DNA of 64,000 bases from Thermofilum sp. (GTDB taxonomy: Archaea > Thermoproteota > Thermoprotei > Thermofilales > Thermofilaceae): the NCBI GenBank assembly GCA_038741495.1, contig JAVYKX010000001.1, forward strand, positions 366,918-430,917, in the 5' to 3' direction. Below the pieces are notes generated by a model, which made no database searches, was not told where the DNA came from, and saw nothing but the letters and a program-made list of their open reading frames with translations. This document shows, one piece after another, positions 30,763 to 61,140 of the stretch; the stretch's first letter is position 1, and each line of letters starts with the position of its first letter. Both the position numbers and the translations under genes were made by a program.

Positions 30763-30793
30763 AGCTCTTCTTCAGCTTCTAGTCCCGCAGCCT

Positions 30794-31061
30794 GGGTCCC
30801 GCGCCGGTGCTCATCTCCCCCTTTGGCCGTTGCGGGCCTCTGGGGCCCGCCCTGCGGCCTCCTCGCGGGAGACCGGGGCGGGTCATGGGGTCGGCCGCCG
30901 CCCTTGGCGGTGGCCTACACCCCCTCCTTTCAGCGCCCCGTCGCCGGGGCGCATCCCCGGAGGGGGACCTCCCGGTTGGTAGCGGGGGTGGACCCTCGAT
31001 CCCGCGCGCGGAGCACCCGGGCACCAGCGCCGAAGCGGCGAGGTCCCGGGAAGCGGGGCTC
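30794..31061 (-). ncRNA. Candidate structured RNA gene of about 270 nt, family unknown
   Basis: The block between sfsA and the next gene is far more GC-rich than its surroundings and folds on itself. A closing helix pairs GGGTCCCGC (30794-30802) with GCGGGGCTC (31053-31061), all nine positions with two G-U. Inside, GGTGCTC (30806) pairs with GAGCACC (31011). Hairpins: 30825-30859 (GGCCG and GCGGGCC arms), 30893-30915 (ten pairs), 30920-30966 (CCCCCTCC with GGAGGGGG around an inner GCGCCCC/GGGGCGC), 31028-31040 (CGCCG AAG CGGCG). A minus-strand TATA box lies 26 bases upstream of 31061, so transcription from 31061 toward 30794 is most likely. I could not match it to SRP RNA or RNase P RNA: neither the SRP helix 8 loop nor the RNase P P4 boxes were found. 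Confidence 0.6.
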
Positions 31062-31083
31062 CGTGTGGGGCGGTTGTGTAGAA

Positions 31084-31092
31084 TTCTTTAAG
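31084..31092 (-). promoter_or_regulatory. TATA box for the candidate RNA
   Basis: On the minus strand CTTAAAGAA follows a run of five C (BRE-like) and is centred about 26 bases before position 31062, exactly where the closing helix begins. Confidence 0.5.
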
Positions 31093-31153: not shown

Positions 31154-31768
31154 TTGAGCGGTGGGGGGCTGCTGATTGTTGAAGGTTTTGGGTTGCTCGG
31201 CGGGAGGATGGCTGTCTACCCGGAGGGCAGGGTGCTGGTGATCAGCGGGGACAGGACGATAGCGGCGGAAACAGCGCTGCCGGTGAGGGCGGAGCGGGCT
31301 TTCAGCGTCGACTGCAGGGAGGTGCCCGGCGACGTTGTGGCGGCGGAGGTGAGGAGCGAGGGGGTGCTGGTGGTGAGGACGAGGGAGGGTGAGGAGCTCG
31401 TCCTCGGCGGTGAGGGGCTGGAGGCGCTTAAGCTCCCGCCTGCCGAGAAGTGGTGCGATTTCCCGTGCGGGGTGCTTGAAAAAGCTGCTAGAGCAATGGA
31501 GGGGGAGTGGGGTTTCGCGGGACTCGAGCTGGAGGGCGACTTGCTGACGGTGAGCTTCAACGGCTTGAGGTGGAGGGCGGTGCTGGGAGGCTGCAGCTGC
31601 AGCTTCAAAGCGGAGGTGAACGTGCACACGCTGAGGAAGATCCACGAGGTCTTCAGAGCCGCGGGGCTGAAGCCGGTGAGCGTAGCGTTCAACACCCTGG
31701 GGCGCACGGTGCTGATGAGGCTGAGGGGTGGGTGGCTCACCGTGTACACGGCTTTCGCCACGGGGTGA
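31154..31768 (+). CDS. Unrecognised beta-rich protein beside the RNA candidate
   Basis: Up to 204 residues from TTG 31154; ATG 31207 is an alternative. The composition is rich in Gly, Glu, Val and Leu with alternating strands (RVLVISGDRTI, GVLVVRTREGEELVL, GDLLTVSFNGLRWR) and one helix before the C-terminus. Four Cys occur (DCREV, CDFPC and CSCSF), with no clear metal pattern. It has no signal or membrane segment. I could not assign a family. The plus strand is unusually G-rich here compared with neighbours. Confidence 0.5.
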   Translation: MSGGGLLIVEGFGLLGGRMAVYPEGRVLVISGDRTIAAETALPVRAERAFSVDCREVPGDVVAAEVRSEGVLVVRTREGEELVLGGEGLEALKLPPAEKWCDFPCGVLEKAARAMEGEWGFAGLELEGDLLTVSFNGLRWRAVLGGCSCSFKAEVNVHTLRKIHEVFRAAGLKPVSVAFNTLGRTVLMRLRGGWLTVYTAFATG

Positions 31769-31888
31769 GTGGTGTGGAGAGGCTGGCGAGCGGCGAGGGC
31801 ATGAGGGAGCTGCGTGAAGCTGGGGAGAAAGGCGGTATACTCCCCGGGGCATCGAGCCTAGAGGACGCCTACTGTGCTGCGGATCAGG

Positions 31889-59983: not shown

Positions 59984-60625
59984 GTGAGAGACATGAGGGC
60001 GGAAGACTCTGAACTGAGCGATGCGGTTGCGCTAGCTGATCTAGCTCGGAGGATGAGAAGGTACTTCCTAACGGTCCAAACGGCTTACGCGTTCCTCTTC
60101 AACGCCACGATAATTTGCGCCTACTGGCTGGCGGTGATATCCTTGGCTTTCCTGTTCGACCTTGTCGAGCCGCTTCTGTTCTGGGTGGCCGCCCTCATCA
60201 TCCTTATACCAGTTGTGCTCCTAGCTGCCTACGTGAGTGGGGTTGCCTCCCCGAGTGCCACTTCCCAGGTCTGGAGGACTCGAGGCAAGTACTTCGGGCT
60301 GTTCTTCGCCGTGCCTTTCGTCATCACGTATTCCATGCGCCTGCCACCGTACATGTACTCCATAGCTTGGTACCCTGCGCTCGCGGTCTCACTGCTCCTC
60401 GTACACGTCTTCATCGAGAGAGAATCCTACCGGCGTGGCGAAGTCCTGGCTATGCCCTTCCTCATCTCATCGGTACTTACGCTGCTGACCTCCCCTCTCA
60501 TCATCGTCATAATTAACAAGTCGCCACTCGCCGCTTGGACGCTAGCTCTATCCCTCATGCTCACCAGCTACACTTCCGCCGCCTTCATAGCACTATACAA
60601 AGCTAGAAGGGCTCTAGTGGGTTAG
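59984..60625 (+). CDS. ABC exporter membrane protein, second
   Basis: 213 residues, six predicted hydrophobic segments. The N-terminus is soluble and acidic (EDSELSDAVALADLARRM), then come helices with FAVPFVITYSM. No family motif was recognised. Its position three bases after the ABC-2-type permease suggests a third component of the same complex. It ends right before the partial copy of the GC-rich RNA-like element. Confidence 0.62.
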   Translation: MRDMRAEDSELSDAVALADLARRMRRYFLTVQTAYAFLFNATIICAYWLAVISLAFLFDLVEPLLFWVAALIILIPVVLLAAYVSGVASPSATSQVWRTRGKYFGLFFAVPFVITYSMRLPPYMYSIAWYPALAVSLLLVHVFIERESYRRGEVLAMPFLISSVLTLLTSPLIIVIINKSPLAAWTLALSLMLTSYTSAAFIALYKARRALVG

Positions 60626-60628
60626 GAT

Positions 60629-60697
60629 GGTTCCGCGCCAGTTCACTTCCCCCTTCACTGGCTTAGGCCTTCGGGCCCGCCTTGCTGCCTCCGCGAG
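60629..60697 (-). repeat. Partial second copy of the structured RNA-like element
   Basis: This stretch aligns with 30795-30870, about three quarters of positions by eye. Shared landmarks are TCCCGCGCC versus TTCCGCGCC, TCTCCCCCTTT versus TTCCCCCTT, and GGGCCCGCC versus GGCCCGCC then TGCCTCC. Its inner stem is GGCC TTCG GGCC (60666-60677), a UUCG tetraloop where the other copy has a longer stem and another loop. Strand is given as for the full copy; this copy could be on either strand. Confidence 0.55.
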
Positions 60698-60700
60698 AGT

Positions 60701-61140
60701 AGGAAAGAGCTGAGGGCGAGGCTGGAGGAGCGGGTTGAGAGGCGCGGCGCGGAGCTCCAGCAGCTCTTCGGCGAGTACGGTTTGGGTGTTGACGCGCGGA
60801 AGCTGCTGCGCAGCGCGGTGAGGGATCTGTGTTCTTCAGCCTGCCTCGCAGCCCGCTGAGCTGGTACGGCTCGCTGATCGAGGAGGTTAGGGAGGGCTTG
60901 GAGGGAGCTGGGGACGAGGTTTGGGAGGAGCTGATGCTCCACTACAGCACTGCTATCGTGGTGAGGGGCTCTACAGCTTGGGTGAAGGTGGGCTACCCTC
61001 CCTCAAGGCTCTACACCGCCAAGTTCAGGAGAAGCGTGAGCGTGGCTGAAGCTGTAGTGGCGCCGGTGGCGAGGTACCTCATCCCTCCAGGAGAGGTGAA
61101 GGTCGTCATGGAGGGTGCTTCCACTTTCCAGGCGGGCACG
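60701..61140 (+). pseudogene. Probable decayed gene after the RNA-like repeat
   Basis: 60701-60859 reads as a charged helix-rich peptide (RKELRARLEERVERRGAEL, then FGEYGLGVDARKLLRSAVRDL) with no start codon. At about 60829 a second frame continues as SWYGSLIEEVREGLEGAGDE, then HYSTAIVVRGSTAWVKVG and RRSVSVAEAVVAPVARYL, which also look like protein. A single frameshift near 60830 would join them. After 61140 the frame is low-quality. The family is unknown. Confidence 0.45.

What the first reader, a model, noticed from the sequence alone, without database searches (positions are those of the whole stretch)
30794..31061. GC-rich, self-complementary block with its own promoter: candidate new structured RNA
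A 268-base stretch without a plausible gene is much richer in G and C than the DNA around it and has a nested set of complementary arms: a nine-pair closing helix (30794-30802 with 31053-31061), an inner seven-pair helix (30806 with 31011) and four hairpins with five to ten pairs each. A TATA box with a C-rich BRE lies 26 bases upstream of the closing helix on the minus strand. In hyperthermophiles such GC islands are usually stable RNAs. I looked for SRP helix 8 (GGAA loop with AGCA) and RNase P P4 boxes (GAGGAAAGTCC, ACAGAA) on both strands and did not find them, so it may be an undescribed RNA.
Basis: partly seen in the sequence, partly recalled or inferred. Interest (0 to 1): 0.8.

Follow-up and report, generated by a model that had tools for sequence, protein, structure and literature searches.

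The report
Guide-RNA-like end of TnpB element
The GC-rich block is one of about 21 scattered copies of the structured tail of a mobile genetic element whose intact copies carry a very divergent relative of the RNA-guided DNA-cutting protein TnpB, so it looks like an undescribed kind of guide RNA (omegaRNA) left behind without its protein gene.

Summary
The block is real and GC-rich (75-79%) and matches no Rfam family. RNase P and SRP RNA lie elsewhere in the genome. It is not a single-copy RNA gene. About 21 related copies are scattered in this genome, and more occur in another Thermofilaceae genus. In the six full-length elements it lies immediately 3' of, and partly overlapping, a TnpB/Cas12f-like gene on the same strand (window minus strand). 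All copies share a sharp 3' end (GATGAGC..CCGGCGCGG), followed by different host DNA in each, which is where a TnpB omegaRNA carries its guide. A covariance model of the core finds 26 copies at E<0.001. 32 of 48 pairs show two-sided changes. Two congeners have separate but similar RNAs 3' of 22 of 23 tnpB genes.
Best explanation: the block is the right end and omegaRNA-like scaffold of a TnpB element. In the window tnpB is deleted; the block, a cargo gene and another gene's stub remain. The TnpB family is confined to Thermofilaceae, seems to lack the RuvC-II glutamate, and has multiplied without a recognisable Y1 or serine recombinase. Transcription and guide function are not shown.

The parts
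30796..30987 (-). Core of the omegaRNA-like scaffold (tnpB-sense strand); its constant 3' end (..GATGAGCACCGGCGCGG) is at about 30797
   Evidence: R1 covariance-model match, 79.1 bits, E 1e-14 to 1e-15; same constant end in about 20 other copies
30798..31061 (-). Whole remnant of the mobile element's right end: RNA core plus variable 5' hairpin and the out-of-context 3' tail of tnpB
   Evidence: 94% identical to the tnpB-linked copy G000:C4:27879-28143 (L006/L039) and 90% to G000:C2:136100; homology stops at 31061, where tnpB would continue
30988..31061 (-). 5' variable hairpin region, overlapping the tnpB 3' tail in the intact copy
   Evidence: the tail of P0005 matches the translation of window ORF 30779-31024 minus
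30776..30795 (-). Host-derived flank directly after the constant 3' end: the position of a TnpB guide (inferred)
   Evidence: flanks after the constant end differ in every copy except an inverted duplicate; the 17-mer occurs nowhere else in the genome with up to 2 mismatches
31083..31089 (-). TATA-like CTTAAAG proposed as promoter; lies in window-specific DNA and could equally serve gene X on the plus strand
   Evidence: sequence; region not covered by homology with other copies
31154..31768 (+). Gene X: cargo ORF of the element (likely start ATG 31208), no family found; fragments of its 3' end lie just 5' of tnpB in other copies
   Evidence: relative beside a block copy in G010 (L040)
31769..31825 (+). 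Stub of gene Y (MERLASGEGMREL..), second cargo gene; homology to the other elements ends here
60630..60782 (-). Second remnant of the same RNA family in the window, a right-end stub joined to a gene Y pseudogene (60781-61140, plus)
   Evidence: R1 match 48.1 bits, E 4e-8; tblastn of gene Y

Best explanation
The block is the right end of a Thermofilaceae-specific TnpB element. Read on the minus strand it is the element's omegaRNA-like scaffold. In intact copies the order is: left end, cargo genes, tnpB, then this structured RNA, which starts within or just after the 3' end of tnpB and ends at a constant GGCGCGG. Host DNA follows and would be the guide. The encoded TnpB-like protein would bind this scaffold and use the adjoining host sequence to recognise the site where the element inserted, cutting or blocking a copy that lacks the element and so helping the element persist. 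In the window tnpB has been deleted, leaving scaffold, gene X and a stub of gene Y. This copy is therefore a relic or a non-autonomous derivative that could at most act with a TnpB made elsewhere in the genome. Shown: dispersal, linkage and strand relation to tnpB, constant end, structure with covariation, TnpB/Cas12 fold. Inferred: transcription, binding, guide use and any effect on DNA.
For: About 21 dispersed copies in this genome plus copies in G010. Six full-length elements carry a TnpB-like gene (five read as open frames of 486-513 codons, one with internal stops) ending in or at the block, on the same strand. The ORF has Pfam Cas12f1-like_TNB (38.7 bits, cut-off 26.3), weak NCBIfam TnpB matches, profile matches to TnpB and Cas12m4 structures, and a model (pLDDT 80) whose best PDB matches are Cas12f and TnpB-reRNA complexes. 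Constant 3' end with unrelated flanks. The CM of the core retrieves 20 copies here and 6 in G010. 91.7% of cells paired and 32 of 48 pairs with two-sided changes, against 8.5 in shuffles and at most 16 in slid controls. In congeners G013/G014 an RNA with similar motifs lies 3' of 22 of 23 tnpB genes, same strand, with no other hit in 158 kb. The tnpB-sense strand folds better in 21 of 22 of these, and a consensus fold favours that strand in the G000/G010 set (-72.4 vs -62.2). G015 keeps SfsA but has neither block nor gene X after it.
Against: No transcript data. The TnpB family is very divergent: NCBIfam scores of about 23 bits against a cut-off of 100. The RuvC-II glutamate appears replaced, so nuclease activity is doubtful. 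The window copy and its closest relatives (L006, L009) fold better on the PLUS strand. The model built from G013/G014 RNAs does not recover the G000 copies, so common descent of the two sets rests on position and short shared motifs. The counts were made on an alignment fitted to the model. No guide-target or TAM test was possible.
Confidence: 0.82

Rival explanations
1. The block is only a DNA end of the transposon: a GC-rich, foldable right terminus recognised by a transposase (as in MITEs or IS200/IS605 ends), with no RNA function.
For: Constant end, truncated and tnpB-less copies; hairpins in DNA would also covary; no expression data.
Against: A conserved fold of about 180 nt is far longer than known IS200/IS605 end hairpins (own knowledge); G.U pairs outnumber A.C cells 30 to 3 on the tnpB-sense consensus, although the plus-strand consensus shows a similar count (27 to 8), so this alone is weak; sense strand folds better in 21 of 22 congener copies; no Y1 transposase in this genome or in G013/G014.
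Confidence: 0.12
2. An independent structured RNA gene with its own promoter, transcribed from the minus strand of the window.
For: TATA-like CTTAAAG about 25 bases before the block on the minus strand; strong folding.
Against: Repeat family linked to tnpB; the promoter lies in DNA the other copies lack; the closing helix is not conserved and fails on that strand.
Confidence: 0.03
3. The plus strand is the functional RNA of the window subfamily (for instance a 5' leader of gene X), since it folds better there and gene X follows it in both G000 and G010.
For: Plus-strand fold z -4.3 with identical MFE and centroid; the block-gene X order recurs in G010 C8.
Against: Most relatives favour the other strand; only two cases, with gene X 33-35% identical.
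Confidence: 0.03

Closest known systems
TnpB omegaRNA/reRNA of IS200/IS605 elements (e.g. ISDra2; PMC8612924, PMC10278001)
   Same: Structured RNA at the 3' end of tnpB, same strand, overlapping the ORF, ending at a constant element end followed by host DNA
   Different: No Rfam match; only distant TnpB similarity; no Y1 transposase in the genomes of this genus that carry the family (searched: G000, G013, G014, G016); transcription and guide use untested
RAGATH-18 reRNA of IS607 TnpB (PMC11061315)
   Same: Precedent of a structured RNA noticed first and later found to be a TnpB guide RNA; scaffold about 187 nt plus 20-nt guide
   Different: Not matched by Rfam models here; no serine recombinase in the genome; overlaps the ORF in several copies, unlike IS607
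Cas12m2 (type V-M, non-canonical RuvC triad, silences without cutting; PMC10442227)
   Same: Related fold, RuvC site lacking a canonical residue, so DNA binding without cleavage is conceivable
   Different: CRISPR-associated and the replaced residues differ (HDD there; here the RuvC-II Glu position holds V/A/I followed by D)
Haloarchaeal sotRNAs / circular omegaRNAs (PMC12558985)
   Same: Archaeal tnpB sense-overlapping RNAs
   Different: Different lineage and IS200/IS605 TnpB; no sequence match found here

Membership tests
TnpB (RNA-guided nuclease family) | RuvC/TNB zinc-ribbon domain and Cas12/TnpB fold | tested here: met
   PF07282 38.7 bits in P0005 (24.7, just below cut-off, in P0001); PDB profile and fold matches
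TnpB (RNA-guided nuclease family) | NCBIfam curated cut-off for guided_TnpB | tested here: not met
   23.3 and 22.2 bits against 100: a divergent relative, not a standard member
TnpB (RNA-guided nuclease family) | Catalytic RuvC triad D-E-D | tested here: inconclusive
   D193 and D395 invariant in 13 sequences; the position aligned with Glu is V/A/I, followed by invariant D324; no residue-level superposition
omegaRNA of TnpB elements | Structured RNA at the 3' end of tnpB on the same strand, with constant 3' end | tested here: met
omegaRNA of TnpB elements | Guide taken from DNA next to the right end, with a TAM at the left end | not testable with these tools
   Flanks are unique; left end of G000 elements and TAM not defined; no targets assayed
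omegaRNA of TnpB elements | Match to a described Rfam family of TnpB-associated RNA | tested here: not met
   no match for window block, L030 or L110 RNAs to any of 4227 Rfam families
IS200/IS605 or IS607 element | Y1 (PF01797) or serine (PF00239) recombinase in the element or genome | tested here: not met
   none in G000, G013 or G014; the only hits in the genus are in G011
RNase P RNA / SRP RNA | Rfam model match | tested here: not met
   the genome's own copies lie at C2:1960-2249 and C2:70585-70900

The most novel reading that the evidence does not exclude
A Thermofilaceae-only TnpB lineage with its own undescribed omegaRNA and a RuvC site lacking the usual glutamate acts as an RNA-guided DNA binder (or cuts with a rearranged site), and spreads to more than 20 copies per genome without a known transposase, with tnpB-less copies supplying extra guide RNAs in trans.
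Probability: 0.25. Interest if true: 0.8.

Novelty: new variant of a known kind. Interest (0 to 1): 0.58.

Why it matters
It adds what appears to be an undescribed omegaRNA family from hyperthermophiles, attached to a TnpB branch that curated TnpB models miss. If functional it offers a heat-stable RNA-guided protein with an altered active site. The lack of a recognisable transposase in genomes carrying six to about twenty tnpB elements makes it testable how such elements spread.

Tried and rejected
RNase P and SRP RNA: both found elsewhere. Rfam at E<=5: nothing. Single-copy ncRNA: rejected by about 21 dispersed copies. LINE-like retroposition from 'constant 3' end, variable 5' truncation': considered, but the DNA search used the right end as query, so only copies keeping it could be found, and gene X fragments without the block exist. 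Gene X as a sliding-clamp-like protein: no family or PDB match, model too poor to use (pLDDT 51). A phage source: no match for P0005 in phage records. Reciprocal RNA search with model R2 in this genome's loci: negative. Trans target for the window flank: no second site. MAFFT plus RNAalifold on mixed RNA subtypes gave no clear fold, hence the split by subtype.

Full report
Observation. The block at 30794-31061 is much richer in G+C than its surroundings and lies between SfsA and a small ORF of no known family. Both strands fold better than shuffled sequence, the plus strand more strongly. There is no Rfam match in the window or, at E<=5, in the block. The genome's RNase P RNA and SRP RNA are elsewhere.

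A repeat family. A DNA search found 20 matches in the genome itself (one copy split into two) and a few in two genomes of another genus of the family, but none in six congeners. Oriented alike, the copies share a sharp end, TTCCGCGCCGGTGCTCAT on the window plus strand in most copies (ATGAGCACCGGCGCGG on the minus strand), beyond which every copy has different host DNA except for one inverted duplicate. On the other side copies differ in length.

Linkage to tnpB. Six loci extend into elements of about 1.75 kb with a TnpB-like gene on the strand that is minus in the window, running up to or into the block; five of the six read as open frames of 486-513 codons and one has internal stops. The protein carries the Cas12f1-like TNB domain, scores weakly with TnpB and Cas12f models, matches TnpB and Cas12m4 structures by profile, and its predicted structure (mean pLDDT 80) is closest to Cas12f and TnpB-reRNA complexes. 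D193, D324 and D395 are invariant in 13 sequences. In the profile alignment the canonical RuvC-II glutamate falls on a hydrophobic position just before D324. I regard that as likely but not proven.

Distribution. Strong matches occur in 6 of 81 genomes of the class, all in the same family; named members are Thermofilum sp. NZ13 and Thermofilales archaeon RSNS8. G013 and G014 have many full-length elements, with a shared left end (GTAGCAATGCTAC..) and right end. Upstream they carry a small winged-helix-like ORF and a SWIM-like ORF (these names are from motif reading only). No Y1 transposase or serine recombinase is found in G000, G013 or G014, so the mobilising enzyme is unknown.

RNA structure. 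Model R1, built from nine cores on the tnpB-sense strand, finds 20 places in G000 and 6 in G010, including the window block (79 bits) and a second stub at 60630-60782 (48 bits). On 27 distinct aligned sequences 91.7% of pair cells are standard and 32 of 48 pairs have two-sided changes, against 8.5 in shuffles and 8-16 in slid controls; the alignment was fitted to the model, so this leans in its favour. The consensus fold of the nine cores is better on the tnpB-sense strand (-72.4 vs -62.2 kcal/mol). In G013/G014 a separate model, R2, finds 22 places in 158 kb, all at the 3' end of a tnpB on its own strand, 10 of them not in its training set. Seven of the nine weak R1 hits in these genomes also fall there. 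Shared motifs are CCGCGCGC near the 5' side, CCCAUGA, GUGAAGGGG or AUGAAGGG, and GAUGAG..GGCGCGG at the end. R2 does not find the G000 copies.

Strand. Sense folds better in 21 of 22 G013/G014 copies and in all eight tightly related B-group copies of G000, but worse in the window copy and its nearest relatives L006 and L009. The window subfamily therefore gives no strand evidence of its own; that comes from the relatives.

The window copy. Homology to the tnpB-linked copy L039/L006 covers 30798-31061 and stops where the conserved part of tnpB would begin. Gene X (31154-31768) and a stub of gene Y follow. Fragments of the same genes lie on the tnpB-start side of intact elements, and gene X is found only in G000 and G010 among 17 genomes of the family. 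In G015, SfsA is followed after 77 bases by another gene, with neither block nor gene X. So the window most likely holds an inserted element that has lost tnpB. The TATA-like site lies in DNA that the other copies lack, and could serve gene X.

Function. By analogy with TnpB (PMC8612924, PMC10278001, PMC11061315) the RNA would be the scaffold and the adjoining host DNA the guide. Transcription, binding, TAM and activity are not shown. With an altered RuvC-II site the protein might bind without cutting, as Cas12m2 does (PMC10442227). The window copy is most likely a relic or non-autonomous; its would-be guide matches only its own site.

Verdict. An apparently undescribed RNA family, but of a known kind: omegaRNA of a divergent TnpB element.

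Noticed in passing
window 60629-61140: Second remnant of the same element: a right-end stub just after the stop of ORF 59984-60625, fused to a gene Y pseudogene.
   Followed up: partly
L037 1823-1985 and 3679-3842 (G000:C3): A full-length tnpB element is bracketed by a 164-base inverted repeat (98.8%) made of the right end plus about 72 bases of host flank; could be a biological inversion or an assembly artefact.
   Followed up: no
G000, G013, G014 genomes: No Y1 transposase or serine recombinase although tnpB elements are present in many copies; mobilising enzyme unknown.
   Followed up: partly
L092-L110, upstream of tnpB: G013/G014 elements carry a conserved small winged-helix-like ORF near the left end and a SWIM-like zinc-finger ORF on the opposite strand, often disrupted by internal deletions.
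   Followed up: partly
L040 6271-6882 (G010:C8): Same order as in the window, block copy followed by a gene X relative without tnpB, in another genus.
   Followed up: partly
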